This document shows, one piece after another, positions 19,585-63,448 of a stretch of DNA of 64,000 nucleotides (position 1 is the first letter of the stretch; every line of letters starts with the position of its first letter). This stretch comes from Rhodocyclales bacterium (lineage in GTDB: Bacteria > Pseudomonadota > Gammaproteobacteria > Burkholderiales > Rhodocyclaceae): positions 682,001 to 746,000 of the forward strand of contig JACRPA010000002.1 in the NCBI GenBank assembly GCA_016214145.1. The letters run 5' to 3'. A program made the translations under genes and the position numbers. The notes beneath the pieces were generated by a model. That model searched no databases and had not been told where the DNA came from. It saw only the letters and a program-made list of their open reading frames with translations.

Positions 19585-19609
19585 AAAAGTCAGTCCCCGT
19601 AATACGGCG
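19585..19609 (-). repeat. GCCGT-N8-GACTGACTTTT motif, copy 1
   Basis: Minus-strand copy, about 30 nt after the ppk stop. N8 is ATTACGGG. It faces copy 2 across a REP pair, so the ppk/relA convergent gap carries an inverted pair of this motif. Confidence 0.85.
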
Positions 19610-19651
19610 AGATAACGAGGTGGGAGGCTGCTGCCGGCCAGGAGCGGCCTT

Positions 19652-19719
19652 GTAGGTCGGGCTTCAGCCCGACTTGAGCGCCCGAGCAACCGCCGCTGTC
19701 GGCCTGAAGGCCGACCTAC
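19652..19719. repeat. GTAG-type REP inverted pair (REPIN)
   Basis: GTAG-GTCGGGCT/AGCCCGAC hairpin and inverted GTCGGCCT/AGGCCGAC hairpin ending in CTAC, in the gap between convergent ppk and relA. It is nested between two copies of the GACTGACTTTT motif. Confidence 0.9.
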
Positions 19720-19754
19720 AGACAAACGGCCGCAACGGGTCGATAGCATCCGCT

Positions 19755-19779
19755 CGCCGTACCACCGGGACTGACTTTT
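19755..19779 (+). repeat. GCCGT-N8-GACTGACTTTT motif, copy 2
   Basis: Plus-strand copy, N8 ACCACCGG, 10 nt before the end of relA. Forms an inverted arrangement with copy 1, about 150 nt away. Confidence 0.85.
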
Positions 19780-19788
19780 CCAAACGCC

Positions 19789-21969: not shown

Positions 21970-22046
21970 TTGATGGATGCGGGAACGGCCCGGAGATCGG
22001 GCCAACGGGGGAATTATCGCCGAAAAGGCGCAGCGGCGGACGAAGC

Positions 22047-22071
22047 CGCCGTATCACGGAGACTGACTTTT
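22047..22071 (+). repeat. GCCGT-N8-GACTGACTTTT motif, copy 3
   Basis: N8 is ATCACGGA. It ends 4 nt from the korB stop codon, between korB and relA on the same strand. The inner CCGT-ATC-ACGG could form a tiny hairpin. Confidence 0.85.
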
Positions 22072-22075
22072 GACT

Positions 22076-22981: not shown

Positions 22982-22997
22982 GTCGTTTCCTTTCGAT

Positions 22998-23054: not shown

Positions 23055-23059
23055 GGGGC

Positions 23060-27836: not shown

Positions 27837-28814
27837 ATGCTCCCCAGCACGGATTGGCGCGAACAGGTCGCCCCGGACGAAACGGAACGCTTCGAGCGCT
27901 ACGCGCGCGACATCGCCGCCATGCAGGCGGGCAAGTCGCGCAAATACGGCAACGGCCGCGCCCTGCACCGCAAGCAGCTGCTCGGCCTGCAGGCCGAATT
28001 CGAGGTGCTGCCCGGCCTGCCGGCGCCGGCGCGCCACGGGCTGTTCGCCGCGCCCGGCCGGCACCCCGCCTGGGTGCGCCTGTCCAATGGCGACCCGGCC
28101 CGGGCCGCCGACGCCAAGCCGGACATCCGCGGCTTCGCCATCAAGGTGTTCGGCGTCGCGGGCCCCGGCGCGCTCGGCGCGGGCGACGCCGCCAGCCAGG
28201 ACTTCCTGCTCATCAACCAGCCGGCCTTCGCCTTCCCGAAGAGCGACGAGTTCGTCGGCCTGGCGATGGCCGTGACGCGGGGCGGCGGCGCCCTCCTCAA
28301 ATATGTCTTCGGGCGCTACGGCATCGGCGGCGGCCTGCGCCTTATCAGCCGCCTGGCGAAAACCATGGCGAAGCCCTTCAGCGGCTTCGCCAGCGAAACT
28401 TTCTTCAGCGCGGCGCCCATGGCCTGCGGGCCCTATGCCGTGCGGCTGAGGCTGCTGCCGGCAAGCGGCCGCGCCGCCGAAAACGCGGCGTCGGACTGGG
28501 CGCGGGACATCCAGGATCGACTGGGGCAGGCGCCCCTCGCCTTCGACTTCCAGCTGCAGTTCTTCACGGACGAGGCGACCACCCCCATCGAGGACGCCTC
28601 GGTGGACTGGCCGGCGCCCTACGTCACCGTCGGCCGCCTGCATGTGCCCAGGCAGGATTTCACTTCGGAGGAAATCCGGCAGCTGCAGGACAGGGTGGAG
28701 GCGGCCGCCTTCGATCCCTGGTCGGCGCTGATGGAACATCGACCGCTCGGCGATGTGATGCGCGCCCGCAAGGTCGTCTATTTCTCCAGCCAGAAAACGC
28801 GCGGCGCTGTTTGA
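27837..28814 (+). CDS. catalase-family (heme peroxidase-like) protein
   Basis: 325 residues, shorter than true catalases (about 480). Recognisable catalase-fold segments are HPAWVRLSNGDPARAADAKPDIRGFAIKVFGV near residue 75 and DFLLINQPAFAFP near 125; RALHRKQLLG near residue 42 could hold the distal histidine. These short catalase-related proteins often act as peroxidases or in lipid hydroperoxide chemistry; the reaction is not established. It is divergent from the kor operon and shares the intergenic FNR-type site. An AAGGAG ribosome site precedes the ATG. Confidence 0.8.
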   Translation: MLPSTDWREQVAPDETERFERYARDIAAMQAGKSRKYGNGRALHRKQLLGLQAEFEVLPGLPAPARHGLFAAPGRHPAWVRLSNGDPARAADAKPDIRGFAIKVFGVAGPGALGAGDAASQDFLLINQPAFAFPKSDEFVGLAMAVTRGGGALLKYVFGRYGIGGGLRLISRLAKTMAKPFSGFASETFFSAAPMACGPYAVRLRLLPASGRAAENAASDWARDIQDRLGQAPLAFDFQLQFFTDEATTPIEDASVDWPAPYVTVGRLHVPRQDFTSEEIRQLQDRVEAAAFDPWSALMEHRPLGDVMRARKVVYFSSQKTRGAV

Positions 28815-28817: not shown

Positions 28818-28842
28818 CGCCGTCCTGCAGCGACTGACTTTT
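28818..28842 (+). repeat. GCCGT-N8-GACTGACTTTT motif, copy 4
   Basis: N8 is CCTGCAGC. The copy begins 3 nt after the catalase-like stop and its last two T bases form part of the TTG start codon of the EamA gene. Confidence 0.85.
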
Positions 28843-33511: not shown

Positions 33512-33764
33512 GTCGCCTCCTTGCCCAGCGTGCATTATGGCGCAGGCCGGAGCAGCCGCCGTGCCATGGAGACTGACTTTTGTTTTGCGCTTATCAGTCG
33601 GCAACACGGCCAACCGCGCCCCCCCCGATAAGGGTGTTGTTATACGGACAGGGAGGAACGGAACCCATTGCCCGTCAATTGATTACGGTGGCATTATGGC
33701 GTCTGAATCAATAGAGAATATCCGGACCCAGGCGTCCGTTCACTAACTGTTAGGCCTCGTTTCA
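33512..33764. other. left edge of accessory island, no clear gene
   Basis: This 253-nt stretch holds a plus-strand GCCGT-N8-GACTGACTTTT motif at 33557-33581 (copy 5, N8 GCCATGGA) and, at 33749-33755, GTTAGGC, which matches the right core of integron attC sites and lies 10 nt before the next start codon. A 16-codon frame at 33696-33746 could be a gene remnant. From here the base composition falls well below that of the flanking chromosome. Confidence 0.5.
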
Positions 33765-34951: not shown

Positions 34952-35017
34952 AAAAGTCAGTCCTCGCGACACGGCGCCTGAATCCTGCTGCACGCCATAC
35001 CACAGCGACTGACTTAT
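34952..35017. repeat. inverted pair of GCCGT-N8-GACTGACTTTT motifs, copies 6 and 7
   Basis: Copy 6 (minus, 34952-34976, N8 GTCGCGAG) and copy 7 (plus, 34993-35017, N8 ACCACAGC, with CGCCAT and CTTAT variants) face outward as a 66-nt unit whose ends are AAAAGTCAGTC and GACTGACTTAT. The unit looks like a small element with terminal inverted repeats. Confidence 0.82.
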
Positions 35018-35803: not shown

Positions 35804-35840
35804 TTCCCGGCCACCCGCCTGCGAGGCGCTGCCCGGTTTT

Positions 35841-35864
35841 GCCGTATCACGAAGACTGACTTTT
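35841..35864 (+). repeat. GCCGT-N8-GACTGACTTTT motif, copy 8
   Basis: N8 is ATCACGAA. It lies 37 nt after the vapC stop and about 57 nt before the hydrolase-like fragment, the same order (motif, then hydrolase 3' end) seen at 41182 and 42010. Confidence 0.85.
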
Positions 35865-35920
35865 GCTCCGCTCAACGTCCGCTCACGCGAGCATCGGTCT
35901 TCTCCGGAACTTCATTTTCA

Positions 35921-36003
35921 GGAAATCCGTTCGATGAACCCGGTCAACGCCTCGACCGTGGCTTGGGACTGGTTCTTGTGCCGGGAAAGACAACTGGCAG
36001 CGG
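35921..36003 (-). pseudogene. diverged fragment of the alpha/beta hydrolase 3' end
   Basis: About 80 nt aligns with the last codons of the hydrolase gene at 42092 and with the better fragment at 41221: shared stretches are GAAATCCGTTCGATGAACC, CGTGGCTTGGGACTGGTTC and TTGTGCCGGGAA, with many substitutions and a premature end at the Sel1 gene. Oldest of three copies. Confidence 0.7.
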
Positions 36004-36009
36004 GCCAAA

Positions 36010-37146
36010 TCAAAAGCGCTCTCTCAGCACCAATTCGGCATTTGCATAACCGCTATCCCTCGCTCGTTCAAACCATTTCCTTGCCTCTTCTTTGTTGGCT
36101 TCTAGCCCACGGCCATAAAGATGAAATATTCCCAAGTTATATTGGGCTTGGCCGAGCCCTTGCTCTCCCGCCTTCCGGTACCACCGAATTGCCTCCGCGT
36201 CATCCTGCTTCGTGCCGCGGCCTTTGTCGTAAATTACGCCCAGGTAACCCTGAGCCTCGCGGTAGCCTCCCTCAGCCGATTTTCGATACCACTCGATAGC
36301 TCGGCTCATATTGCGATCCACTCCTCTGCCATCTTCGTACCGCATGGCCAATTCACACTGGGCTTTCGCGTTACCTGACTGGGCCGCAGTCAGATCCGAT
36401 TCGAGTGTCGCCGTATCCTGCCTGCGTGATTTCAATTGCTCCATTATCTGCTCTTGCCGCTGCAGAATCGGAATAGCGCGTTCATAACCGCCCTTGGCAG
36501 CCATGACCATCCAGTGAAGCGCTTCCTCTTCATTTTTTTCAACGCCGTCGCCTTGAGCATACGCATAACTCAAATTGAACTGAGCCACGGGATACCCCTG
36601 TTCGGCTGCTTTACGGGTCAGATTTGCAAATTCGTTATGATCCACACGGCCGGCTCCAGAGCCAACCGATAGGTAAAGCATCGCCAATTCGGATTGAGCC
36701 GATGCGACCCCTTGATTGGCCAGATCGCGAACTTCTTCGAAGTATGACTTCGCACTGTCTTTCCATTGATAGCCGGACGACAGCAAGCACATGACGTACC
36801 GATCCGAAAGATCGTCGGAAGAAGACGTACCGATGAAACTCTCTCTGCGGACAGGATAGCCCTCCTCAGTCGCTACTGGAGAGGAGCGACGGGAGAGCAT
36901 CGTTGTGTAAATGAACCCGCCAGTGTTCCGATTCTTTAGAACATATTTCTTGAGATCATCGAATATTCCAAGAATGGAATAGCTCTCCTGCCGGGTGGTC
37001 TGCCCTTGCGCAACAGCGAGACACCGCCACATATCTTTCGCCCTGCTTTCTCTGGAAGAACTTGCTGGCGCGGCCAGTTCCTGACTCGATGCAAGTGCCG
37101 GAAAAAATAACACACCGACAATTGCCAGAATAAATCGCATATACAT
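36010..37146 (-). CDS. secreted or periplasmic Sel1-repeat protein
   Basis: 378 residues, with a signal peptide (MRFILAIVGVLFFPALASS, cleavage near residue 22). From about residue 140 there are Sel1-like repeats: SAQSELAMLYLSVG, VAQFNLSYAYAQGDG, KAQCELAMRYEDGRG, EAQGYLGVIYDKGRG, QAQYNLGIFHLYGRG. Such proteins bind partners in signalling or envelope functions. The only minus-strand gene of the island. I use ATG 37146; ATG 37140 is also possible. The function is not known. Confidence 0.82.
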   Translation of the reverse strand: MYMRFILAIVGVLFFPALASSQELAAPASSSRESRAKDMWRCLAVAQGQTTRQESYSILGIFDDLKKYVLKNRNTGGFIYTTMLSRRSSPVATEEGYPVRRESFIGTSSSDDLSDRYVMCLLSSGYQWKDSAKSYFEEVRDLANQGVASAQSELAMLYLSVGSGAGRVDHNEFANLTRKAAEQGYPVAQFNLSYAYAQGDGVEKNEEEALHWMVMAAKGGYERAIPILQRQEQIMEQLKSRRQDTATLESDLTAAQSGNAKAQCELAMRYEDGRGVDRNMSRAIEWYRKSAEGGYREAQGYLGVIYDKGRGTKQDDAEAIRWYRKAGEQGLGQAQYNLGIFHLYGRGLEANKEEARKWFERARDSGYANAELVLRERF

Positions 37147-37293
37147 GTACAGGTCTCCCCAAAATGCCACGCTTCGATACTGGTTAGCCCGGAATCAACA
37201 AGAAAAAAAAGCGTTAATTCAGATGGGGTAATAATATCCCAGCCGTATTGGGGCTGCCACATTGCTTGGATGGGAGCTGCAACTACAAAGCAC

Positions 37294-37386
37294 AGGAGTC
37301 GATTTCTTGCACAAACTGATCGACTCAGGTACCTAACGATCTACAGGATCTGACAGGCGTTAATTGAATCTCTTGCGTGTCAGATC
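37294..37386. repeat. GGTACC-family hairpin and second inverted repeat
   Basis: AGGAGTCGATTTCTTGC to CGACTCAGGTACC (37294-37333) is another member of the 34113 family. Just after it, GATCTGACA (37347-37355) and TGTCAGATC (37378-37386) form a perfect 9-bp stem. The rest of the roughly 300-nt gap between the Sel1 and lipoprotein genes shows nothing else recognisable. Confidence 0.7.
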
Positions 37387-37446
37387 AATACAATGGCATT
37401 ATGCAGCCTTACAGAAATTCTGCTTCGACGTCCGAATGGCCTTCAA

Positions 37447-38088
37447 ATGAAACCCTATTACTCGTTAGTCGCCGCACTCATGCTCTCCGCCTGCAGCTCC
37501 ATTCCTGACGTAAGGAATGAGTATCAAGGTTCTGATGCGGGAAGAGTTGCAATCGGCATTGGCGCCTCGTCCAATACCTATTACTCGAGCTATGCATTCA
37601 TGTTCAGAAAGGTCGGGGAAAACAATGTGGATTCGAATCGCTTTGTCTATTTTCAAGACAACGTATTCTCAGCCCAGAAGCGCGACTACGACAATCCAGA
37701 AGAGAACGGCGTTGTTCAGTCGTTTAGGCTGGCACCGGGTTACTACGAAATATTCAATTTCGATGTTTTCCTGAACGGTGGCACGATACAAAAAAACTTT
37801 GGCTCCAAGAAAGATTTTTCCATCCCCTTCAACGTGCGCCCTAACGAAACGACCTATTTGGGTAACTATCAGGCCAACATGGTGACGGGGAAGAATTTCT
37901 TCGGATTTACTATTCTTGCTGGCGCCGTGTTTGTTGTCACGGACAGAGAGAAAGCAGACCTTGATCACGTTAAGAAACGTCTTCCTAATGTTTCGTTTGG
38001 CCCTGTATCGAACGCAACGCCCAAGGTCAAGGCCATTGCCAATCCATTCCTCGTTGAGGCAACAGACATGCCACTCCCATCTCGTTAG
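37447..38088 (+). CDS. lipoprotein, unknown
   Basis: 213 residues, with lipoprotein signal LVAALMLSACSS (Cys at about residue 16). The body is beta-rich with APGYYEIFNFDVFLNGG near residue 100, recalling small outer-membrane lipoproteins that bind or modify surface polymers, but no family is named. One hydrophobic segment (FFGFTILAGAVFVVT) near 160. Start ATG 37447 is chosen because it creates the lipobox at a normal distance. Confidence 0.7.
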   Translation: MKPYYSLVAALMLSACSSIPDVRNEYQGSDAGRVAIGIGASSNTYYSSYAFMFRKVGENNVDSNRFVYFQDNVFSAQKRDYDNPEENGVVQSFRLAPGYYEIFNFDVFLNGGTIQKNFGSKKDFSIPFNVRPNETTYLGNYQANMVTGKNFFGFTILAGAVFVVTDREKADLDHVKKRLPNVSFGPVSNATPKVKAIANPFLVEATDMPLPSR

Positions 38089-38126
38089 ACCTCTCAACTG
38101 TACAGTGACAATAAGGTGAAATCGCA

Positions 38127-38900
38127 ATGGAAGGTAAAGTCATCCCGGCCATCACTCCAGATAGAACTTACGAGAACTGGAAAACGTTGGGCACAGTATT
38201 ATTTGGCTTCATGACCGCATTGATATTTGTGGTTCTCCAAATGGCCACAATGACATTTATTGTGGTCAGCAGAAAACCCGAACTCACTGCGCCACAGTTG
38301 CAGGATATGTTGCTCGCTGCGCAGAGCGATGGCTTCGTCATATCGCTGACAACAATCGTTACCATGATTGTTTGCTGCGCAATTGTCGCCGGAGTAATAA
38401 AGCTGAAGCGGGGTTCTAATCTGGCGGATTATCTGGCAATTAAGTCCGTTCCAACAAGGGCACTCATCGCCTGGCTCGGAATTCTGATTGCATTGATCGC
38501 AGCATCAGACTTGGTCTCCCTCTATCTCGGCAGGCCACTCGTTCCATCGTTTATGACTTCTACGTATGCAACAGCACAACCCGTTTGGTTGCTTTGGGTG
38601 GCGCTGGTTTTCGCAGCCCCAGTTTTTGAGGAGATATTCTTCCGCGGCTTTCTTTACAAGGGCTTTGCATCAGGCTTCATTGGCCCGATGGGTAGCGTTA
38701 TCCTGATTGCAGGTCTTTGGGCCGCGATTCACACTCAGTACGATGCATATGATATGGGGACAATATTCATCACAGGAGTAGCCCTGGGTCTGGCAAGAAT
38801 GCGCACTGGCTCACTTCTTGTGCCTCTCGCAATGCACGCAACGGCAAACATCGTGGCCAATGCAGAAGTGGCAATTCTGAGTTGGTACAGCGTCACCTAA
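38127..38900 (+). CDS. CPBP-family intramembrane metalloprotease
   Basis: 257 residues and about eight membrane segments. Family motif 1 FEEIFFRGFLYKG with Glu-Glu at 168-169 and Arg at 173, motif 2 AAIHTQYD with His near 207, and motif 3 AMHATANIVAN. CPBP proteases (CAAX/Abi) act in prenyl-protein maturation or bacteriocin self-immunity. The start is 39 nt after the lipoprotein gene, so the two may be one unit. The stop TAA lies in ACCTAAC, an attC-like left core. Confidence 0.88.
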   Translation: MEGKVIPAITPDRTYENWKTLGTVLFGFMTALIFVVLQMATMTFIVVSRKPELTAPQLQDMLLAAQSDGFVISLTTIVTMIVCCAIVAGVIKLKRGSNLADYLAIKSVPTRALIAWLGILIALIAASDLVSLYLGRPLVPSFMTSTYATAQPVWLLWVALVFAAPVFEEIFFRGFLYKGFASGFIGPMGSVILIAGLWAAIHTQYDAYDMGTIFITGVALGLARMRTGSLLVPLAMHATANIVANAEVAILSWYSVT

Positions 38901-38906
38901 CCTAAA

Positions 38907-38926
38907 GGTACCGGACTGTACCTATT
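38907..38926. repeat. short GGTACCGG repeat remnant
   Basis: GGTACCGGACTGTACC is a truncated member of the GGTACC hairpin family, 6 nt after the CPBP stop codon. The about 70 nt between it and the acetyltransferase start show nothing else. Confidence 0.5.
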
Positions 38927-38998
38927 GATAATTACAAGTGCATACTGCAGGCTGAATAGCTATCCCAATCCGAGCCGGCCCGGTTGTCAGGCCACATC

Positions 38999-39493
38999 AT
39001 GAACTACCGCATCCTTCCGATCGCAGAAGAACTTATTCCAAGTTTTAGGGAAACCGCTGACGCCATATTTCGGGAATCGCGGATGTTTTCGTTTTTCGAG
39101 GCGCCCCCGCTTGAACAATTCAAGCAGTTCGTCCAGAGCACCATCAGAAATGACGAGCCTCAATTCGTTGCAGTGAGCGGAGATGCCGTGATCGGCTGGT
39201 GCGACATCTTAATAAAACCGCGACCCGCCCAGCGACACAGCGGTGTGCTCGGCGTTGGCGTGTTGAGTGCCTACCGTCGTCAAGGCGTCGGGATGGCTTT
39301 GCTGGAAGCAACGATTAACACGGCAAGGAACAAGGGGCTCACTCGCATCGAGTTGTATGTGCGAACCGACAACGAGAATGCCCGAAGACTCTATGAGAAA
39401 TTCGGTTTCGCCGTGGAGGGCCTGCTTCGCAAGCACATCATCATCGATGGGGCGTATCGAGACAGCTATATCATGTCAATGATATCCGAGTAG
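38999..39493 (+). CDS. GNAT-family N-acetyltransferase
   Basis: 164 residues. The acetyl-CoA site is HSGVLGVGVLSAYRRQGVGMALLEATI (motif A with RRQGVG near residue 98), followed by LYVRTDNENARRLYEKFGFAVEG, the motif B pattern. Resembles RimI/ribosomal or small-molecule acetyltransferases; substrate unknown. Start ATG 38999 is used rather than TTG 38984. The stop codon is immediately followed by an attC-like half site. Confidence 0.85.
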   Translation: MNYRILPIAEELIPSFRETADAIFRESRMFSFFEAPPLEQFKQFVQSTIRNDEPQFVAVSGDAVIGWCDILIKPRPAQRHSGVLGVGVLSAYRRQGVGMALLEATINTARNKGLTRIELYVRTDNENARRLYEKFGFAVEGLLRKHIIIDGAYRDSYIMSMISE

Positions 39494-39522
39494 GCCCAAC
39501 CATTCCTTCAAGAGGACGGGCG
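39494..39522. other. attC-like half site
   Basis: GCCCAAC followed by CATTCCTTCAAGAGGACG resembles the left half of integron attC sites, where the stop codon of the cassette gene abuts the RYYYAAC core. No matching right half lies before the next gene, so the site would be truncated. Confidence 0.4.
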
Positions 39523-39556
39523 ACCCTTGAACCGCGAACCAACAATTGAGCCACTT

Positions 39557-39985
39557 ATGCGTTACCGTTTTGCCTCATCGGAAGACTCAGAACAGCTCGC
39601 CAAGATGAATCTTCGACTCATAGCCGACGAAGGTCATCTCAATCCGATGAACATCCCACGGCTCGCTGAGCGAATGACCGGGTGGCTGCAGAGCGAATAT
39701 CAGGCGGTACTCTTCGAGGAGGACAACATCCCGGTGGGCTATGCGCTCTTCAGGCATGAGCCGGAGTACGTGTATCTCAGGCAGTTGTTCGTCGCCCCCG
39801 AGCGTCGGCGCCAAGGTATCGCCAGAAACGCTCTCTCCTGGCTTTGGGCCAATGCATGGCAGTCTGCGCCTCGCCTCCGCATCGACGTTCTCGTCGGCAA
39901 CGCAGCGGGCCGAGGGTTCTGGCGCTCGGCAGGCTTCACCGAGTACTGCATAACCATGGAGGCTTCCGCCCCCATGGCGCGATGA
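39557..39985 (+). CDS. GNAT-family N-acetyltransferase
   Basis: 142 residues. Motif A VYLRQLFVAPERRRQGIARNALSWL near residue 75 and VLVGNAAGRGFWRSAGFTEYCITME at the C-terminus. Different subfamily from the acetyltransferase just upstream. ATG 39557 is used; a TTG at 39527 is the alternative. The next small gene begins 1 nt after its stop codon. Confidence 0.84.
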   Translation: MRYRFASSEDSEQLAKMNLRLIADEGHLNPMNIPRLAERMTGWLQSEYQAVLFEEDNIPVGYALFRHEPEYVYLRQLFVAPERRRQGIARNALSWLWANAWQSAPRLRIDVLVGNAAGRGFWRSAGFTEYCITMEASAPMAR

Positions 39986-39986
39986 A

Positions 39987-40193
39987 ATGAAATTCGATAT
40001 CTACGGCCGATTCCAACTCGAAGTGCTTCGCGAAAACGATTCGTGGGCGGTTTATCACCTCGGACCAGGAACACGACTGCCCGCAGACGAAGTTGTGCTT
40101 CCGGCCGAACTCAAGGCCAGTGAACTTGCGGTTTTTCTTGACGACCTGTTTCACGAGCTCGATGGAAACAACTGTGGCGTTCGCGAACTTTAA
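39987..40193 (+). CDS. small conserved protein, unknown
   Basis: 68 residues: MKFDIYGRFQLEVLRENDSW at the start and ELAVFLDDLFHELDG near the end. It looks like a small conserved family of unknown function often found beside acetyltransferases. One nt separates it from the upstream gene, so translational coupling is likely. Confidence 0.65.
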   Translation: MKFDIYGRFQLEVLRENDSWAVYHLGPGTRLPADEVVLPAELKASELAVFLDDLFHELDGNNCGVREL

Positions 40194-40208
40194 CCGGGCT
40201 TCCCTGCC

Positions 40209-40496
40209 ATGACTGACTGCCCGCCCGGCTTCGCACAGTTCCTGCGCAGCGCGAAGGCGGCCACCTATGCTGCCCAAGGCGACGATGCGTCCGTCACCCC
40301 CGTTCTGCCGGACTCCAGGCAGCTCGAGTATCGCGATGGCGCCTTTCTCTACCGCGATATCTACGTTGGCATGTTCCGGTTCGTCGGTCAGGAAGTGGTC
40401 TATCAGAATGACCGGGCCGTCTGGTCGACGAGCTATGCCGGCGGTCTGGCGCAGGACGTCTCCGGAAGTGCCGTACCGTCTCGTAACATTGGCTGA
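40209..40496 (+). CDS. DUF5680-like protein, probably truncated
   Basis: 95 residues. FAQFLRSAKAATYAAQGDDA, LEYRDGAFLYRDIYVGMFRFVGQEVVYQ and VWSTSYAGGLAQ fit the DUF5680 pattern. The family normally continues for some 15-25 more residues after YAGG; here the reading frame diverges to DVSGSAVPSRNIG and stops, so the C-terminus is probably lost. Function unknown. Confidence 0.65.
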   Translation: MTDCPPGFAQFLRSAKAATYAAQGDDASVTPVLPDSRQLEYRDGAFLYRDIYVGMFRFVGQEVVYQNDRAVWSTSYAGGLAQDVSGSAVPSRNIG

Positions 40497-40519
40497 GAGT
40501 CATTGGTAACCAAGACAAG

Positions 40520-40592
40520 GTTTATCCGCCGCCATGACGCCGCGCCCTCATCAACCTCTTCCGCTGCGGCGGATAAACGCTATTCGTTAGGC
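40520..40592. other. hairpin ending in GTTAGGC, attC-like
   Basis: GTTTATCCGCCGC (40520-40532) and GCGGCGGATAAAC (40566-40578) form perfect 13-bp arms with a 33-nt loop, followed after 7 nt by GTTAGGC (40586-40592) at the start of the next cassette-like gene. A long stem plus a GTTRRRY core is the attC pattern, but the left RYYYAAC core is not convincing. Confidence 0.45.
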
Positions 40593-40610
40593 GGCATGAA
40601 AGGAGACTCC

Positions 40611-41021
40611 GTGCGCTTTGTTACCTTGGTCTGTCTTGCCATAGCTACAGGCACAGCATTCGCTGAGGTTACTTCCGAGCAACTGACCGAGTTGTACGCG
40701 AAACCCAGCCCGTTCGAAAACGTCGCCCCCGAACGATATATAGCTGAATCCGAGAACGCGTTTGCAATTCGAGACAAAAATCCTCAAGCTCCGGTACATA
40801 TCCTTGTCATTCCCAAGAAGAGGGTTCCTACCCTCCTCCAAGCACCACCAGAATTGGTGGCTGAAATGATCGCGCTGGCCAAGCGGGTCGCGAAACAAGA
40901 GGGGCTTGAAAACGATGGCTACCGTCTCGTCATCAACACACACCCCAACGGGGGTCAAGGTGTTTACCACCTTCACATGCACGTTCTCGGCGGAAGGCAA
41001 ATGAAGTGGCCACCAGGGTAG
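40611..41021 (+). CDS. secreted HIT-family protein
   Basis: 136 residues from a GTG start with an AGGAG site 6 nt upstream. A signal peptide (FVTLVCLAIATGTAFA) is unusual for HIT proteins, which are normally cytosolic nucleotidyl hydrolases. The fold is clear: SPFENVAPERYIAES, PVHILVIPKKRV, YRLVINTHPNGGQGVYHLHMHVLGG with the HLHMH histidine triad near the end. It may hydrolyse extracytoplasmic nucleotide conjugates. An ATG 15 nt upstream is also in frame. Confidence 0.85.
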   Translation: MRFVTLVCLAIATGTAFAEVTSEQLTELYAKPSPFENVAPERYIAESENAFAIRDKNPQAPVHILVIPKKRVPTLLQAPPELVAEMIALAKRVAKQEGLENDGYRLVINTHPNGGQGVYHLHMHVLGGRQMKWPPG

Positions 41022-41142
41022 TCTCTTCGCATACCATGCCGCCCAATCCGGCGGTCGACCCCGTTCGCTTCGCTCTCTGGACGCTGCGCGATAAAGCCGC
41101 GCAGCGCCGGTCACCTTGAACATTCTCTGAAAGCCCCCTGAC

Positions 41143-41206
41143 AAAAGTCAGTCCCGTCAGCACGGCATGAAAACCCGCCCCCGCCGTATCCCAGCGACTG
41201 ACTTTT
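41143..41206. repeat. inverted pair of GCCGT-N8-GACTGACTTTT motifs, copies 9 and 10
   Basis: Copy 9 (minus, 41143-41167, N8 GCTGACGG) and copy 10 (plus, 41182-41206, N8 ATCCCAGC), a 64-nt unit like the one at 34952. Copy 10 also begins the 314-nt segment duplicated at 42010. Confidence 0.85.
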
Positions 41207-41220
41207 CTCTGCGTGCGTTG

Positions 41221-41495
41221 CTTCGATACGGCGGCAATGCCGCCTACTCAGCACGAACGGAGTAGCTAGCAAATCCGCTCGATGAACCCCGCCATCGCCT
41301 CCAGCGTGGCTTGGGGCTGGTCCTTGTGCGGGGAATGACGGCAGTCGGCGAGCATCAGCACTTCGACTTCGCCCTTGCCTGCCTGCGGATGGCTTCGACC
41401 TGCGCCGGCGTGCCGTACTCGTCGTCCTCGCCCTGAATGGCTGACACGGGGCAGGTCACGTGCGGCAGATACTCCTCGATGTTCCGGGCGCGGAA
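41221..41495 (-). pseudogene. duplicated 3' end of the alpha/beta hydrolase
   Basis: This segment is about 90% identical to 42049-42323, covering a CTTCGATACGG repeat and roughly the last 75 codons of the hydrolase gene. Several in-frame changes and a base loss near 41375 prevent it from being functional. It lies 514 nt from the intact copy, with hicBA between them. Confidence 0.88.
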
Positions 41496-41534
41496 CGGGT
41501 TACAATCCTTACAACCCTCTACCGGAGTTCGATC

Positions 41535-41744: not shown

Positions 41745-41953
41745 GTCAATGGCCAGCCGTCAAGGCCAAGCGATTACTTGCCGCGCTGTTTGGTGTTGGG
41801 TGGAAACTCAAGCGCCAGTCCGGATCTCACCGCACACTGTCGCGTGACGGCTGGCCGGACTTCGTCTTCGCCTTTCACGATGGCGAGGAAGTTGGCCCGA
41901 GAATGCTTGTTCGCATCGCAAAGCACACCGGTATTACCCCTAAAGACCTGTAG
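41741..41953 (+). CDS. hicA: HicA-family mRNA interferase toxin
   Basis: 70 residues, double-stranded-RNA-binding-like fold. Catalytic histidine in QSGSHRTLSR near residue 28; VRIAKHTGITPKDL at the end is typical. Blocks translation by cleaving mRNA when HicB is degraded. Here the antitoxin comes first, the less common order. The pair sits between two copies of the hydrolase 3' end. Confidence 0.92.
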   Translation: MSQWPAVKAKRLLAALFGVGWKLKRQSGSHRTLSRDGWPDFVFAFHDGEEVGPRMLVRIAKHTGITPKDL

Positions 41954-42009
41954 TCCAATTCGAGGTTGCCACGGTTTCGGCCCCGTTTATCACGGCGCAT
42001 CACTCATGT

Positions 42010-42034
42010 CGCCGTCCTGCGGCGACTGACTTTT
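42010..42034 (+). repeat. GCCGT-N8-GACTGACTTTT motif, copy 11
   Basis: N8 is CCTGCGGC. First part of the 314-nt segment duplicated at 41182-41495. Confidence 0.85.
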
Positions 42035-42048
42035 CATCTCACACGATG

Positions 42049-42088
42049 CTTCGATACGGCGGCGAAGCCGCCTACTCAGCACGAACGG
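42049..42088. repeat. CTTCGATACGGCGGC repeat next to the hydrolase stop
   Basis: CTTCGATACGGCGGC, a GCCGCC complement and CTACTCAGCACGAACGG; the second copy is at 41221-41260 with two changes. The inner GGCGGC/GCCGCC can form a hairpin that may terminate the hydrolase transcript. Confidence 0.8.
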
Positions 42089-42091
42089 TAG

Positions 42092-42862
42092 CTAGCTGAT
42101 CCGCTCGATGAACCCCGCCATCGCCTCCAGCGTGGCCTGGGGCTGGTCCTTGTGGGGGGAGTGGCGGCAGTCGGCGAGCATCAGCACTTCGACCTCGCCC
42201 GCCGCCTGCCGCCGGATGGCGTCGACCTGCGCCGGCGTGCCGTATTCGTCGTCCTCGCCCTGAATGGCTGACACCGGGCAGGTCACGTGCGGCAGGTATT
42301 CCTCGATGTTCCAGGCGCGGAAATCGGGATGCAGCCAGATGTCGTTCCAGCCCCAAAATGTTCTTACGGGATCGCGGTGGTACTTGCCGAGCTTCTGCGC
42401 GAGGTCGGTGGTCTCGAAGGCGACCTTGGCCTGGGCGATGCTGGCGATGGAGAGGTCCTCGACGAAGACGTGCGGCGCCATGAGGATGAGGCCGGCGACT
42501 TCGCGCCCGGCCCCGCCGGCGTGGATCAGCGCGATGGAGCCGCCGTCGGAGTGGCCGATCAGCACCGGCTTGTCGATGTCCAGCTTGTCGAGGAGCTCGG
42601 GCAGCGCGACCAGCGCCTCGTCGTGCATGTAGCGCACGGTGAAGGATTCCGTGAGTCCGTCGGACTGGCCGTAGCCGTAGCGCGAGTACACCAGCGTGCG
42701 GCAGCCGGTGGCGGCGGCCACCTTGGCCGGGAAGTCGCGCCACATCGCCAGCGAGCCGAGGCCCTCGTGCAGGAACACCAGCGTCGGCCGGTTGAGCTGA
42801 TGCGCCGGGATGAGCTGGTATTCGAGGTTGTGGCCGGCGGCCTGAATGAAACCGGATTGCAT
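42092..42862 (-). CDS. alpha/beta hydrolase of the benzoate cluster
   Basis: 256 residues. Catalytic triad: Ser in GHSDGG near residue 101, Asp in QGEDDEYGTP near 205, His in DCRHSPHKDQP near 236. Similar hydrolases sit beside aerobic benzoyl-CoA (box) genes in related bacteria; hydrolysis of an ester, CoA thioester or lactone intermediate is possible. It is downstream of the Liv transporter genes on the same strand, separated by a CACAGAGAA repeat. Its 3' end recurs twice in the island to the left. Confidence 0.85.
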   Translation of the reverse strand: MQSGFIQAAGHNLEYQLIPAHQLNRPTLVFLHEGLGSLAMWRDFPAKVAAATGCRTLVYSRYGYGQSDGLTESFTVRYMHDEALVALPELLDKLDIDKPVLIGHSDGGSIALIHAGGAGREVAGLILMAPHVFVEDLSIASIAQAKVAFETTDLAQKLGKYHRDPVRTFWGWNDIWLHPDFRAWNIEEYLPHVTCPVSAIQGEDDEYGTPAQVDAIRRQAAGEVEVLMLADCRHSPHKDQPQATLEAMAGFIERIS

Positions 42863-55880: not shown

Positions 55881-55905
55881 GAAAGTCAGTCTCCGCAATA
55901 CGGCG
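55881..55905 (-). repeat. GCCGT-N8-GACTGACTTTT motif, copy 12
   Basis: Minus-strand copy, N8 ATTGCGGA, last T of the core replaced by C. It follows the GGAG REP pair and precedes the HepT-like gene end. Confidence 0.8.
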
Positions 55906-58190: not shown

Positions 58191-58197
58191 CTCCGTC

Positions 58198-59231: not shown

Positions 59232-60524
59232 ATGACGTTCGGTCGCCGCCGCTTTCTTGCCGCCTCTCTCGCCGCCTGCTCTGCACCGCTCTTCGCACAG
59301 GCGCCGCCGGCCCTGCTGCCCGCCTCGAAAGGCCGGCGCGTCGTCATTGTCGGCGGCGGCTGGGGCGGCCTGTCGGCGGCGCGCCACCTGCGCGCGCTGG
59401 CGCCGGAACTGGACGTCGTGTTGCTGGAGAAAAACCCGTCCTTCTTCTCCATGCCGCTGTCGAACAAGTGGCTGGCCGGGCTGGTCGACGAAAAGCTGCT
59501 GACGCACGACTGCCGCGCCGCCGCGAACGCCTACGGCTACACCTTCCTCCAGGCCGAGGTCACGGCGCTCGACCGCGAGCGGCGCCGCGTACACACCGCG
59601 CAGGGTACGGTCGACTACGACTGGCTGGTGCTCGCCGTCGGCATTCGCCACGACTACGCCGCCTGGTTCGGCGAGGATGCCCGCGCCATCGCACATACAA
59701 GGCAGAACTACTTCTGCGCGTACACGCCGGGCGCCGAGTTCCGCGCCCTCAAGGCGAAGCTGGAAAACTTCAAGGGCGGCGACCTCGTCATGACGATTCC
59801 GCCGCCGCCCTACCGCTGCCAGCTCTCGCCCTACGAGCGGGCGCTGATGATCGGCCACCTGTTCAAGTCGCGCGCCGTGTCAGGGAGACTGACTTTGCTC
59901 GACCCCAACCCGCTGCCGCAGCGCTTCGCCGACGTTTTCCGCGAGCAGTACAGGGACCAGATCGCGCATGTGCCGCATGCGCGGGTGAAGTCGGTTGACC
60001 CCTTCGCCAGGACCATCGCCACCGAGTTCGACGACATCCGCTTCGACGAGGCCATCCTCATGCCGCCGCAGCAGGCCGGAGACCTCGCCTGGCAGGCGGA
60101 CCTCATTGGCCGCGATGCCGGGGGCAAGCCAAGCGGCTGGGCGGCGCAGGAGCCGCTGCATCTGCATGCCGTGGGGGACGAGCGGGTCTTTCTCGTCGGC
60201 GACATGATCGACCGCGCCTCGCCCTTGTTCGGCCACTACCCCAAGAGCGGCCACATGGCGAGCCGCCTCGGCCGCATCGCCGCGCAGGAGATCGCCGCGC
60301 GCGCCGGCGGCAAGGCGCCCGAAACGCTGTTGCCGGAAAGCAGCTGCTTCATCACCACAAGGCTGGAACCGCAGGAATCGCTGCGCCTCGACACGCACTA
60401 CCGCCTGCGCGGCGACGGGCTCATCGTGCAGTCGGCGAAGCAGAACGTCGATCCCAACCCGCGCGGGGAGGACGTCGACTGGGCGAAGGGGATGTTCGGG
60501 GAGTTTCTTGCCTACAGGCCCTGA
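59232..60524 (+). CDS. FAD-dependent sulfide dehydrogenase-like protein (FccB family)
   Basis: 430 residues. Tat signal GRRRFLAASLAACSAPLFAQA, then FAD fold VVIVGGGWGGLSAARHLRALAP, later YDWLVLAVGIRHDY and VFLVGDMIDRASPLFGHYPKSGHMA. This matches flavocytochrome c sulfide dehydrogenase flavoprotein subunits, which oxidise sulfide in the periplasm; no cytochrome partner gene is next to it, so another substrate is possible. Residues SGRLTL near 220 coincide with an in-frame GACTGACTTT motif. Confidence 0.85.
   Translation: MTFGRRRFLAASLAACSAPLFAQAPPALLPASKGRRVVIVGGGWGGLSAARHLRALAPELDVVLLEKNPSFFSMPLSNKWLAGLVDEKLLTHDCRAAANAYGYTFLQAEVTALDRERRRVHTAQGTVDYDWLVLAVGIRHDYAAWFGEDARAIAHTRQNYFCAYTPGAEFRALKAKLENFKGGDLVMTIPPPPYRCQLSPYERALMIGHLFKSRAVSGRLTLLDPNPLPQRFADVFREQYRDQIAHVPHARVKSVDPFARTIATEFDDIRFDEAILMPPQQAGDLAWQADLIGRDAGGKPSGWAAQEPLHLHAVGDERVFLVGDMIDRASPLFGHYPKSGHMASRLGRIAAQEIAARAGGKAPETLLPESSCFITTRLEPQESLRLDTHYRLRGDGLIVQSAKQNVDPNPRGEDVDWAKGMFGEFLAYRP
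59873..59897 (+). repeat. GCCGT-N8-GACTGACTTTT motif inside a gene, copy 13
   Basis: N8 is GTCAGGGA; the last base is G instead of T. It encodes AVSGRLTL in the flavoprotein without obvious insertion or frame change. Confidence 0.75.
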
Positions 60525-60534
60525 ACACCACCCT

Positions 60535-60591
60535 GTAGGTCGGCCTTCAGGCCGACTTCGGCGCTTGTCGTCGGGCTAAAGCCCGACCTAC
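60535..60591. repeat. GTAG-type REP inverted pair (REPIN)
   Basis: GTAG-GTCGGCCT/AGGCCGAC and inverted GTCGGGCT/AGCCCGAC-CTAC between the convergent flavoprotein and DUF411 genes. Confidence 0.9.
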
Positions 60592-60599
60592 GAAACAGC

Positions 60600-61085
60600 T
60601 TAGTGCCGCGCCCAGACTTTGGTCTTGCCGTCGGGCAGGACCAGCAGGGTGTCGTAGAACTCGCGGCGCGGCGGCGCGTTCTCGCGGTCGACGATGGTGC
60701 AGCCGCGCTCGCAGCTGAAATCGGCGCCGGTCGGCTCTCGCCCCGGCGCGCCCATCGGCAGGCCGGGCACGGCGAGGCCGCGCGCCTTCGGCTTTTCCTT
60801 CAGCAATTCCTTGATGTCCTCGGCCGGCACGTGGCCTTCGATGAAATACCCTGCCACCTTCGCGGTCATGCGCGACTCGACCGCGGCCGGCACCTTGAAG
60901 CGGCGCTTGATGGCATCGATATCGTCGACCTCCTTCACCGTGACCTTGAAGCCGTTCTGCCGCAGGTGCTCGGCCCAGTCGATGCAGGACAGGCAGACCT
61001 TCGGCACGTAGACCTCGACCGGCGGCAGGGTTTCCGCCGCCGCCGGCAGGGCCGCCAGCGCGGCGAGGAGGATCAGTCTTTTCAT
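60600..61085 (-). CDS. DUF411-family secreted protein
   Basis: 161 residues, signal peptide KRLILLAALAALPAAA. VEVYVPKVCLSCIDWAEHLRQNGF near residue 28 carries the CxxC pair; the family often sits with copper-resistance genes and may bind metal. The C-terminal extension with CERGC (near 128) is longer than usual for DUF411. Start ATG 61085; it lies 20 nt downstream of the comEC stop. Confidence 0.82.
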   Translation of the reverse strand: MKRLILLAALAALPAAAETLPPVEVYVPKVCLSCIDWAEHLRQNGFKVTVKEVDDIDAIKRRFKVPAAVESRMTAKVAGYFIEGHVPAEDIKELLKEKPKARGLAVPGLPMGAPGREPTGADFSCERGCTIVDRENAPPRREFYDTLLVLPDGKTKVWARH

Positions 61086-61105
61086 GGCTGCATTTTCGTT
61101 CAATC

Positions 61106-63448
61106 TCATTGTCCGTGCCAGTAGCGGCGGCGCGCCTCGCGCTGCAAAGTCAGTCCCGGCGGGACGGCGCCGAAGCGCAGCGTGACGGCGCCGTCGCGGT
61201 CGGTGCGCAGCAGCTGCGCGCCGGTGGCTTCGTAGCGCCGCAGCACCTCGGCGTTCGGATGCCGGAAACGGCTGCGGTAGCCTACCGGGAAAATCACCGT
61301 CTTTGCCCCCACCGCCGCGAGGAATTCCGCCGACGAGGAGCTGCGGCTGCCATGGTGCGGCGCCAGCAGCACATCCGCGCGCAGCCGCTCGCCATGCCGC
61401 TTCAACATCGCCTGCTCGGAAACGGTTTCGATGTCTCCAGTGAGCAGCACGCTGCCATTCGCGGCGATGATCTTCAGCACGCAACTCATGTCGTTCGTTT
61501 TGCGAACGGTCCTTTCGTAATCGGCCGCCTCCGGATGCAGCATCTCGAAGCGCACGCCGTCCCACTCCCAGGACTGGCCGTCGAAGCAGGGCCGGTGCCC
61601 GGGCGCCTCGCGGAAGGGATGGTCTTCGGGCATGGAACTCGCCGTCCAGCCGATGGGCAGGCCGTCGAGCAACGACAGCGCGCCGCCCGAGTGGTCCTTG
61701 TCCAGGTGCGTCACGATCAGTCCGTCGAGCCGGCGCACGCCGGCGGCACGCAGATAGGGCAGGAGGATGCGGTTGCCGCTGTTGGCGTCGGGCGAGAACT
61801 GCGGCCCGGTGTCGTAGACCAGGTCGTGCTCCGACGTCTGCGCATGCACGGCCAGTCCCTGGCCGACGTCGAGCACGGTCAGGCGCAACTCGCCCCCGGC
61901 CGGCCGCGCCGGCGCCACCAGCACCAGCGGCAGCATGAGGAATGCGCCAACGCCGCGCGAGGGAAAGCCGCGCGGCAGCAGCAGCCACACGCAACCCAGC
62001 GTCGCCAGCCCCACCGCCCAGCCTGGCGGCGCATGCTGCTGCCAGACGGCTGACGGCAGGTCGGCCAGCCACCCGATGAAAAGCATCAGCCAGGCGAGCA
62101 ACTGATGCGCCAGCACCAGCACCACATCGAACGGCAGCAGCGCCCCGACCAGCGCCAGCGGCGTGATGACGAAACTGACTATTGGAATCGCGACGGCATT
62201 GGCCAGCGGCGAGACGAGGGAGAATTGCTGGAACAGCGCCAGCAGCGCCGGGATCATGCCGATCGTGATGGCCCATTGCGCCCGGCCCCATTCGGCCAGC
62301 CAGTGGCCCGGCGCCACCCGCCCCGAGCCGATGTAGAACAGCAGCGCCACCGCGCCGAAGGACAGCCAGAAGCCGGCCGAGAGCACCGCCCAGGGATCGA
62401 GCAGCAGCACGATCAACAGGGCCAGCGCCAGCACGCGGCTGCCCGATGCCGCGCGGCCGAGCCACAGCGCCAGCGCCACCACCGAGATCATGTACAGCGT
62501 GCGCTGCGCCGGCACGCCGAAGCCGGCCAGCAGGCAGTAGGCGAAGGCCGTCGCCCAGCCGGCCGCGGCGGCAGCCTTCTGCGCCGGCAGGCGCAGCATG
62601 AGGGCGGGCCGGCGGCGCCAGTAGAAGGAAGCCAGCCAGGCGCCGAGTCCGGCCACCATGGTGACGTGCAGGCCCGAGATGGACATGAGATGCGAAATTC
62701 CGGTGCGGGCAAACAGTTGCCAGAGGCCGCCATCGATGGCGCGCTGGTCGCCCACCACCAGCGCCACCAGCACGCCGGCGTAGTCATGCTCCGGCAGGGA
62801 GCGGAAGAAGCGCTCGCGGATCAGCTCGCGCAGCCGCTCGACGGCCAGGTCAAAGCGCGCCACGAAGGCGGCCAGGCGCCGGTTGTCCTCGGCGTTGCGC
62901 ACGTAGCCCGTCGCGCGCACGCCGCGCTCGAACAGCCAGGCCTCGTAGTCGAAGCCCTGCGGGTTGAGGTTGCCGTGCGGGCGCTTGAGCCGCACGGTGA
63001 GCTGCCAGCGTTCGCCGGCGTGCACCTCGGGCGCGGCATGCCACTCGTCGCTCTCCTCGGTGCGCCAGCCGCGATACCAGGCGAGCGAGATCAGCGACGG
63101 CACCGCCGCCTCGGCGTTCTCCACCTCGAAGTCGAAGCGCACGCCGTTCTCGTAGGACTGCGGCAGGGCGGCGACGACGCCCGTCACGCGGATGTCGCGG
63201 CCTTCGTTTTCGGATGGCAGATGATCGGCCAGGCGCCACTGGCCGAACGCCGCGGCCCAGGCGAAGCCCGCCAGCAGCGCGGCCAGGCAGGCCAGCGACC
63301 GTCTCCACCGTCCCCGCGCATACCACGCAGCAAAAGTCAGTCCCGCCAGGACGGCGGCGAGCGCCGCCAGCGCGCCCCAGCCTGGCAGAAAGGGCTGCTG
63401 TTGCAGAAACCCGACGCCCAGCGCGAAGCACAGGATGGTTAATCGCAT
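61106..63448 (-). CDS. comEC: ComEC/Rec2 DNA-uptake channel
   Basis: 780 residues. Inner-membrane channel for transformation. N-terminal DUF4131-like region with two or three membrane segments, the competence domain (HYDYAG-like SLPEHDYAGVLVALVVGDQRAI, LMSISGLHVTMVAGLGAW near residue 260) and a C-terminal metallo-beta-lactamase domain (LTVLDVGQGLAVHAQ, VTHLDKDHSGGALSLL with HLDKDH, LLAPHHGSRSS). ATG 63448 used instead of TTG 63457. Two GACTGACTTT motifs lie in frame near both ends. Confidence 0.93.
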   Translation of the reverse strand: MRLTILCFALGVGFLQQQPFLPGWGALAALAAVLAGLTFAAWYARGRWRRSLACLAALLAGFAWAAAFGQWRLADHLPSENEGRDIRVTGVVAALPQSYENGVRFDFEVENAEAAVPSLISLAWYRGWRTEESDEWHAAPEVHAGERWQLTVRLKRPHGNLNPQGFDYEAWLFERGVRATGYVRNAEDNRRLAAFVARFDLAVERLRELIRERFFRSLPEHDYAGVLVALVVGDQRAIDGGLWQLFARTGISHLMSISGLHVTMVAGLGAWLASFYWRRRPALMLRLPAQKAAAAAGWATAFAYCLLAGFGVPAQRTLYMISVVALALWLGRAASGSRVLALALLIVLLLDPWAVLSAGFWLSFGAVALLFYIGSGRVAPGHWLAEWGRAQWAITIGMIPALLALFQQFSLVSPLANAVAIPIVSFVITPLALVGALLPFDVVLVLAHQLLAWLMLFIGWLADLPSAVWQQHAPPGWAVGLATLGCVWLLLPRGFPSRGVGAFLMLPLVLVAPARPAGGELRLTVLDVGQGLAVHAQTSEHDLVYDTGPQFSPDANSGNRILLPYLRAAGVRRLDGLIVTHLDKDHSGGALSLLDGLPIGWTASSMPEDHPFREAPGHRPCFDGQSWEWDGVRFEMLHPEAADYERTVRKTNDMSCVLKIIAANGSVLLTGDIETVSEQAMLKRHGERLRADVLLAPHHGSRSSSSAEFLAAVGAKTVIFPVGYRSRFRHPNAEVLRRYEATGAQLLRTDRDGAVTLRFGAVPPGLTLQREARRRYWHGQ
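61145..61169 (-). repeat. GCCGT-N8-GACTGACTTTT motif inside comEC, copy 14
   Basis: N8 is CCCGCCGG; last base G. It encodes GAVPPGLTLQ near the C-terminus of ComEC. Confidence 0.75.
63332..63356 (-). repeat. GCCGT-N8-GACTGACTTTT motif inside comEC, copy 15
   Basis: N8 is CCTGGCGG; the core is complete. It encodes AAVLAGLTFA in the N-terminal membrane region of ComEC. Confidence 0.78.

What the first reader, a model, noticed from the sequence alone, without database searches (positions are those of the whole stretch)
19585..63356. A 24-25 nt dispersed motif, GCCGT-N8-GACTGACTTTT, in at least 15 copies with a fixed 8-nt spacer
Fifteen copies (19585-, 19755+, 22047+, 28818+, 33557+, 34952-, 34993+, 35841+, 41143-, 41182+, 42010+, 55881-, 59873+, 61145-, 63332-) keep GCCGT (one GCCAT) and GACTGACTT, always separated by exactly 8 nt that vary. 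The motif is not a long palindrome, unlike REPs. Twelve copies lie between genes; three lie in frame inside genes, where the encoded SGRLTL/PGLTL/AGLTF segments look like normal parts of the protein, so they seem to have arisen by substitution or homologous exchange and not by insertion of 25 nt. Candidates: an uptake-sequence-like signal (the window carries comEC), a binding site for a chromosome-organising protein, or ends of a small mobile unit.
Basis: seen in the sequence. Interest (0 to 1): 0.85.

Follow-up and report, generated by a model that had tools for sequence, protein, structure and literature searches.

The report
Likely DNA-uptake watermark in Rhodocyclaceae bacteria
A 25-letter DNA tag is scattered through the chromosome of this bacterium and its relatives, with different genera using different spellings, and it looks most like the tags that let some other bacteria recognise and take up DNA of their own kind, although uptake itself has not been tested.

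Summary
The unit is a 25-bp motif, CGCCGT-N8-GACTGACTTTt, spacer exactly 8. The own genome has 500 copies at up to 1 mismatch (reversed control 3). The genus includes Candidatus Desulfobacillus denitrificans (Rhodocyclaceae); 12 of its 15 other sampled genomes carry 220-545 copies. Some other Rhodocyclaceae genera carry hundreds of copies of the same architecture in other spellings, e.g. CGCCGTcCCGCCAGCGCCGACTTTt. 386 genomes of other families have 0-11. In three sampled genomes 89 of 146 copies are genic, in both orientations; 30 of 57 intergenic ones lie between convergent genes. At 30 gap-free orthologous sites the fixed letters are 97.6% identical, flanks 83.1%. This is the profile of Neisseriaceae DUS and Pasteurellaceae USS, which a 2025 paper calls the only families known. 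comEC is in 23 of 24 genomes, dprA in 14 of 16 carriers. Best explanation: a third, family-level self-DNA uptake signal (0.72). Not shown: uptake and receptor; my receptor leads failed. G009 lacks the motif yet keeps comEC and dprA. A chromosome-organising binding site is not excluded.

The parts
1999..2023 (-).
19585..19609 (-). motif copy, intergenic between convergent genes (polyphosphate kinase and RelA/SpoT-like)
19755..19779 (+). motif copy, same convergent intergenic region
22047..22071 (+). motif copy, intergenic
28818..28842 (+). motif copy, 3 nt after the stop of 27837-28814
33557..33581 (+). motif copy, intergenic
34952..34976 (-). motif copy, left arm of an inverted pair (18 nt between the 22-mers)
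34993..35017 (+). motif copy (GCCAT variant), right arm of the same pair
35840..35864 (+). motif copy, edge of a low-GC stretch
41143..41167 (-). motif copy, left arm of an inverted pair (16 nt between the 22-mers)
41182..41206 (+). motif copy, right arm; within a segment duplicated at 42010
42010..42034 (+). motif copy within the duplicated segment; the core is kept, the spacer differs from the 41182 copy
55881..55905 (-). motif copy, convergent intergenic region
59873..59897 (+). motif copy in frame in an FCSD-like flavoprotein gene (59232-60524)
61145..61169 (-). motif copy in frame near the 3' end of comEC
63332..63356 (-). motif copy in frame near the 5' end of comEC; kept in 10 of the 14 same-genus orthologues (own included) that cover the site
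61106..63448 (-). comEC (DNA internalization competence protein, TIGR00361, 354 bits against a cut-off of 190)

Best explanation
The motif is a self-DNA uptake signal (working like DUS/USS) of Rhodocyclaceae. A surface receptor, probably a type IV pilus component, binds the bipartite 25-bp sequence on free DNA. DNA carrying it is taken in through the pilus/ComEC route and recombined. Copies are kept intact, and new ones spread, because tagged alleles are imported preferentially (molecular drive and/or selection). Receptor and motif drift together, which gives genus-specific dialects. Shown here: abundance, exact architecture, dialects, positional conservation, change by substitution or local replacement at the few variable sites examined, and competence genes in most carriers tested. 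Inferred: the uptake bias, the receptor and the drive.
For: 500 copies at up to 1 mismatch in the own genome against 3 for the reversed control, 254 forward and 246 reverse. [quoted passage not shown] 12 of 15 other genomes of the genus have 220-545 copies. Dialects with the same blocks and spacing occur in other genera: G023 476 exact; G076 634, G385 521, G138 380, G185 344 at 1 mismatch, controls 23-33. On a ComEC tree the sampled genomes of the own genus form one clade (100/100), and the four genera outside it whose spelling was read (G138, G385, G076, G023) use CRCCGACTT (g90, which uses GACTGACTT, was not in the tree). Genic copies 89 of 146 in sampled stretches of three genomes, 60 in the gene's orientation and 29 opposed (p = 0.001); intergenic density 5.7 times higher; 30 of 57 intergenic copies lie in convergent regions that make up 18% of that DNA, p = 4e-9. 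Of 33 unique orthologous site pairs among G000/G001/G002, 28 keep at least 13 of 14 core letters; in the 30 gap-free pairs core 97.6%, flanks 83.1%, spacer 83.3% identical; over all 33 pairs the core is 433 of 462, 93.7%. PMC2397512 reports 97% for DUS against about 85% for conserved sequence (passages); a preferred orientation in reading frames is reported for uptake sequences (abstract). comEC in 23 of 24 genomes, dprA in 19 of 21, minor pilins. In 2.9 million viral contigs only 20 stretches match the exact 16-letter pattern, one match each (no expectation was computed).
Against: No uptake data and no receptor found: the ComP/FimT pilin pair is the front of a general minor-pilin operon also present in motif-free G018, and an MshC-like pilin does not track the motif. 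G009 lacks the motif but keeps comEC and dprA; two carriers, G001 (507 copies) and G385, gave no dprA match. The competence genes are also in motif-free genomes. Copy density (about 1 per 6.8 kb) is lower than I recall for H. influenzae or N. meningitidis. Inverted pairs are few (3 close pairs among 78 copies). Low-GC 4-kb windows are not poor in copies overall. Conserved positions are also what a chromosomal protein-binding site would show.
Confidence: 0.72

Rival explanations
1. The motif is the chromosomal binding site of a cytoplasmic protein that organises or segregates the chromosome, with binding protein and site co-evolving in each genus.
For: Core much more conserved than the flanks at fixed orthologous positions; present in genes and between genes; bipartite with a fixed spacer, like a dimeric protein's site.
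Against: No strand polarity seen along the complete G002 chromosome: the 100 listed of 128 forward hits (exact 16-letter pattern) spread roughly evenly over 2.43 Mb, 17-24 per half megabase (tallied by hand; reverse positions were not listed). Spacing is near random (coefficient of variation 0.93). About 34 bits for 500 sites far exceeds the roughly 14 bits needed to find them (my arithmetic). Absent from G009. Bias to convergent regions and dialect drift are not features that I recall of parS, matS, KOPS or SlmA sites.
Confidence: 0.15
2. The copies are ends or remnants of a small mobile or REP/MITE-like element.
For: Dispersed, hundreds of copies, some inverted pairs. The two close-relative sites that lack the motif do have gaps at the site.
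Against: The interior 8 nt vary while both outer parts are fixed and nothing beyond 25 bp is conserved; 89 of 146 copies are in genes. At comEC copy 1 four same-genus orthologues lack the motif without a gap. The two gapped sites differ by 18 nt one way and 15 nt the other, with the neighbouring residues changed too, so they are no clean 25-nt insertions. Three single copies folded alone are no more stable than shuffles.
Confidence: 0.03
3. An RNA-level element such as a terminator or 3' end signal.
For: Enriched between convergent genes; one inverted pair folds with z -4.7 and another with z -2.2.
Against: Three single copies tested fold no better than shuffles; many copies are inside genes, 29 of 89 antisense; no Rfam match in the window. 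Secondary terminator use of a few inverted pairs is compatible with uptake sequences.
Confidence: 0.04
4. Some other genome-wide signal (recombination hot spot, restriction or methylation target, unknown).
For: Abundance alone.
Against: At 25 bp it is longer than any Chi or restriction site that I recall; dialect behaviour of this kind is not something I recall for those.
Confidence: 0.06

Closest known systems
DNA uptake sequences (DUS) of Neisseriaceae, receptor ComP
   Same: Hundreds of copies genome-wide, genus-level dialects, about 97% conservation at fixed sites, copies in genes and between genes, stop codon TGA inside one frame of the own dialect, competence genes present
   Different: 25-bp bipartite motif with an 8-nt spacer instead of a contiguous motif of up to about 13 nt; the DUS inner core CTG is not kept (CCG in several dialects); no ComP-like pilin found that tracks the motif; few inverted pairs in the 464 kb examined; another family
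Uptake signal sequences (USS) of Pasteurellaceae, candidate receptor PpdA/ComN
   Same: Long discontinuous motif, family-specific types, in genes and between genes
   Different: No GCGG inner core kept across dialects; the fixed 5' block GCCGT and the 8-nt spacer have no counterpart that I know of; Gammaproteobacteria
REP/BIME and MITE repeats (features recalled)
   Same: Dispersed, hundreds of copies
   Different: Not palindromic, mostly in genes, variable interior, no insertion signature found
KOPS / matS / parS chromosome sites (features recalled)
   Same: Chromosome-wide protein-binding motifs in a general sense
   Different: No polarity seen in the listed hits, far longer, dialects

Membership tests
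Uptake sequences (DUS/USS as a functional class) | Hundreds to thousands of near-perfect copies far above chance | tested here: met
   500 against 3 reversed control in the own genome; 55 exact, 23 one-mismatch, 16 two-mismatch in 464 kb
Uptake sequences (DUS/USS as a functional class) | Dialects that follow phylogeny within a family | tested here: met
   spellings of g2, g47 and g88 not read; g90 not placed on the tree
Uptake sequences (DUS/USS as a functional class) | Motif much more conserved than its flanks at orthologous sites | tested here: met
   97.6% core, 83.1% flank in 30 gap-free of 33 site pairs; 93.7% core over all 33
Uptake sequences (DUS/USS as a functional class) | Copies both in and between genes, one orientation preferred in reading frames | tested here: met
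   89 genic, 57 intergenic; 60 same, 29 opposed
Uptake sequences (DUS/USS as a functional class) | Frequent inverted pairs acting as terminators | tested here: inconclusive
   3 close inverted pairs among 78 copies in 464 kb; the two folded are more stable than shuffles
Uptake sequences (DUS/USS as a functional class) | Rare in recently acquired DNA | tested here: inconclusive
   One low-GC stretch without copies, but low-GC 4-kb windows are not depleted overall; 20 single matches in 2.9 million viral contigs, expectation not computed
Uptake sequences (DUS/USS as a functional class) | Competence machinery in carriers | tested here: met
   comEC 23 of 24 (only a short piece at a contig end in G185), dprA 14 of 16 carriers, missing in G001 and G385, minor pilins; also present in non-carriers, so not specific
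Uptake sequences (DUS/USS as a functional class) | Sequence-specific DNA uptake | not testable with these tools
   needs experiment
Neisseriaceae DUS proper | Contiguous motif of up to about 13 nt with inner core CTG | tested here: not met
   25-bp bipartite; CCGACTT in several dialects; definition from PMC12616744 introduction
Neisseriaceae DUS proper | ComP receptor | tested here: inconclusive
   PF16732 pilins in 18 of 20 genomes but also in motif-free ones
Pasteurellaceae USS proper | Inner core GCGG in a 9-nt core | tested here: not met
   not conserved across dialects; definition
REP/BIME/MITE repeats | Palindromic, extragenic, spread by insertion | tested here: not met
KOPS-type polar segregation motif | Strand polarity along replichores | tested here: not met
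   roughly even spread of 100 of 128 forward hits over 2.43 Mb of G002; reverse positions not listed

The most novel reading that the evidence does not exclude
Rhodocyclaceae hold a third, independently evolved self-DNA uptake system with a long bipartite signal, several living dialects, an unknown receptor and at least one apparent loss, in environmental bacteria known mostly from metagenome assemblies.
Probability: 0.62. Interest if true: 0.92.

Novelty: new variant of a known kind. Interest (0 to 1): 0.84.

Why it matters
[quoted passage not shown] A third family, with several dialects and an apparent loss inside one genus, would make open questions testable by comparison: why such signals evolve, how receptor and motif change together, and whether drive or selection keeps them. 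It would also predict natural transformation in this genus, one member of which is reported from anammox bioreactors (PMC8402940, abstract in the listing), and would give a marker of self and foreign DNA in these genomes.

Tried and rejected
Receptor leads. (1) A compact ComP_DUS + FimT pilin pair looked motif-linked but proved to be the front of a general minor-pilin operon, beside ispH (name recalled) in several genomes and also present in motif-free G018. My prediction that G018 would show its own repeat failed: no comparable 8-12-mer in 176 kb. (2) An MshC-like orphan pilin (name recalled) was tested in 45 genomes: no strong match in carriers G010, G014, G015 and G084, strong matches in G100, G032, G022 and G025, which showed no excess of the motif.

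Mobile-element, RNA-element and polar-motif readings were tested and set aside. The low-GC test did not show depletion. A first ortholog test on named loci used 74 of the 80 listed loci (one search found 96 stretches); six from unrelated taxa were left out. The ortholog test dropped alignments under 55% identity and sites without 7 aligned codons on either side; of its 33 unique pairs two kept only 4 core letters, both with gaps at the site, where one motif gene is 18 nt longer and the other 15 nt shorter than its partner. Literature searches for an uptake sequence or this motif in Rhodocyclaceae found none in the held library: (listings only, of which 29, 59 and 65 were longer than what was shown). 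Papers: PMC12616744 (abstract, outline, introduction), PMC3630211 and PMC2397512 (passages), PMC2346458 (abstract and outline), PMC8402940 (start of the abstract in a listing).
Full report
Where it is. The window lies at G000:C3:682001-746000 of a 3.42-Mb genome in 12 contigs. Other named carriers are mostly metagenome assemblies labelled Rhodocyclaceae, Betaproteobacteria or Sulfuritalea. Six of the 80 listed loci came from unrelated taxa and are taken as chance.

The observation. One search finds 17 matches to GCCGT-N8-GACTGACTT at up to 2 mismatches, against 0.38 in shuffles. In 464 kb around the window there are 78 copies at up to 1 mismatch. The aligned consensus is CGCCGTnYYgcgGRGACTGACTTTt, 25 bp with no strongly conserved flank, about 34 bits. 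Spacer 8 gives 78 copies and spacers 7 and 9 give none; 200 scrambles of the two halves give a mean of 0.15, maximum 3; 55 of the 60 exact GACTGACTT sites carry GCCGT exactly 8 nt upstream. The most tolerated change is A to G at position 15, 10 of the 23 one-mismatch copies.

Genome and genus. The own genome has 254 forward and 246 reverse copies at up to 1 mismatch; the reversed-pattern control has 3. In one search (60 rows including the own genome) 12 of 15 other genomes of the genus have 220-545 copies. G009 (98% complete) has 7, G012 (81% complete) 26 and G013 (85%) 55. The 44 genomes outside the genus have 0-13; 12 of the 13 in G054 are one identical sequence, and the 8 in G023 led to the dialects.

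Dialects. Relaxing the pattern showed G023, another genus, to hold hundreds of GCCGTCYCGCCAGCACCGACTT. A survey of 395 genomes of the family with GCCGT-N9-ACYGACTT showed 476 in G023 and small excesses in several other genera; in most of the 68 genera the counts are at the level of the control. At 1 mismatch seven genomes with a small excess reached 634 (G076), 521 (G385), 380 (G138), 344 (G185), 272 (G373), 226 (G287) and 132 (G061), against controls of 13-37; G009 had 18 against a control of 23. Read from fetched stretches, the consensus is CGCCGTcCCGCCAGCGCCGACTTTt in G138, with the same spelling in G076 and, from listed sites, in genus g19 (G033 134, G117 258 matches to a combined pattern). 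It is CRCCGACTT in G023 and GGCGTRCCRCCACGACTGACTT in G185. The two blocks and their spacing are shared; the T-rich end was seen where flanks were read. In G007, inside the own genus, 6 of 10 listed copies read ACCGACTT, so the spelling also varies within the genus. Outside the family, 386 genomes of 50 families have 0-11 matches to the combined pattern GCCGTNNYRNNNNNRCYGACTT; only G475 has 11 and the next have 4. That pattern would miss a GGCGT dialect or more distant spellings. Several of the few copies outside have the exact CGCCGACTT spelling; foreign DNA and assembly contamination cannot be told apart here. A ComEC tree puts the sampled genomes of the own genus in one clade (100/100), with G009 and G013 inside it, which suggests loss, although the inner forks are weak.

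Placement. With my own gene caller, 89 of 146 copies in sampled stretches of G000, G001 and G002 are in genes and 57 between genes, 0.13 and 0.73 per kb. In genes 60 run with the gene and 29 against it. Frame 1 in the gene's orientation would read TGA: the three such copies in the 464 kb are at gene ends, where the motif supplies the stop. Thirty of 57 intergenic copies are in convergent regions, which form 18% of intergenic DNA. Forward-strand hits are spread roughly evenly over the complete G002 chromosome (100 of 128 listed, tallied by hand). Spacing between copies is near random.

Conservation and mode of change. In comEC the 5' copy is present in frame, at 13 or 14 of 14 core letters, in 10 of the 14 same-genus orthologues that cover the site (own included). 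The four without it (G004, G009, G011, G013) align there without a gap; in G009 the 5' block remains and the 3' block is altered by substitutions. The 3' copy is more variable, with one-codon gaps in several orthologues. Across 33 unique orthologous site pairs of G000, G001 and G002, 28 keep at least 13 of 14 core letters. In the 30 gap-free pairs the core is 97.6% identical, spacer 83.3%, flanks 83.1%, p about 1e-17 treating letters as independent; over all 33 pairs the core is 93.7%. Three pairs have gaps inside the motif. In one of them the motif is complete on both sides. In the other two it is absent from the partner, and there the motif-bearing gene is 18 nt longer in one case and 15 nt shorter in the other, with neighbouring residues changed too. 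That looks like local replacement, as by recombination, and not like insertion of a 25-nt unit. In the window a duplicated segment kept the motif core while the spacer changed. A similar contrast, 97% against about 85%, is reported for Neisseria DUS, as is the view that many recent DUS arose by recombination (PMC2397512, passages).

Machinery. comEC is found in 23 of 24 genomes tested, including G009; the miss is the fragmented G012, and G185 shows only a short piece at a contig end. dprA is found in 19 of 21, missing in G001 and G385, both carriers. ComP_DUS-family and FimT/GspH pilins are each found in 18 of 20. These genes also occur in motif-free genomes, so they make uptake possible but do not prove it. 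I found no receptor: see Tried and rejected.

Reading. High copy number of a long motif with a variable interior, kept far better than its flanks, on both strands of genes, with genus dialects and at least one apparent loss, is explained with fewest additions by a self-DNA uptake signal. The uptake step, the receptor and the drive are inferred. A chromosome-organising site remains possible (0.15). By sequence it is not a member of DUS or USS: the inner cores CTG and GCGG are not kept across dialects and the architecture differs. PMC12616744 (introduction) names Neisseriaceae and Pasteurellaceae as the only families known to have uptake sequences; my searches found no report for Rhodocyclaceae in the held open-access library, which lacks most subscription papers.

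Noticed in passing
window 35900-42300: A low-GC stretch (51% in 36-40 kb) with GNAT, HIT and CAAX-protease genes, mostly in one direction, a PIN-domain gene just before it, and no motif copies between 35865 and 41142; it is bordered by copies of duplicated segments (113 nt at 35914, 41262, 42088; 95 nt at 41377, 42204). It looks like an acquired island or cassette-like array.
   Followed up: partly
G007 (same genus): Mixed spelling: 6 of 10 listed copies read ACCGACTT and not ACTGACTT, possibly a dialect in transition.
   Followed up: no
G475, G046, G428, G436, G590 (other families of the order): A few copies of Rhodocyclaceae-like spellings, 2 to 11 per genome; transferred DNA, an early stage, or assembly contamination.
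   Followed up: no
G054 (other family): 12 of its 13 matches are the identical GCAGTTTTGCGGGGACTGACTT, probably one unrelated repeat.
   Followed up: no
G009 stretches (L158, L186-L190): An over-represented TGTTGGCTGT/ACAGCCAACA repeat in the motif-free relative; may be a local array.
   Followed up: no
G000:C3 464-kb stretch: TCTCTGTG (45 copies, 1.6 expected) and TGTAGGTCGG (39 copies, 1.2 expected) are also strongly over-represented.
   Followed up: no
G001 (one contig, 507 copies): No DprA match although comEC is intact.
   Followed up: no
minor-pilin operon beside ispH, G000:C10 around 377900-385800 (L257): The minor-pilin operon varies strongly between species of the genus; the largest protein at its end (PilY1-like by position, name recalled) ranges from 1178 to 1830 aa in four genomes.
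   Followed up: partly
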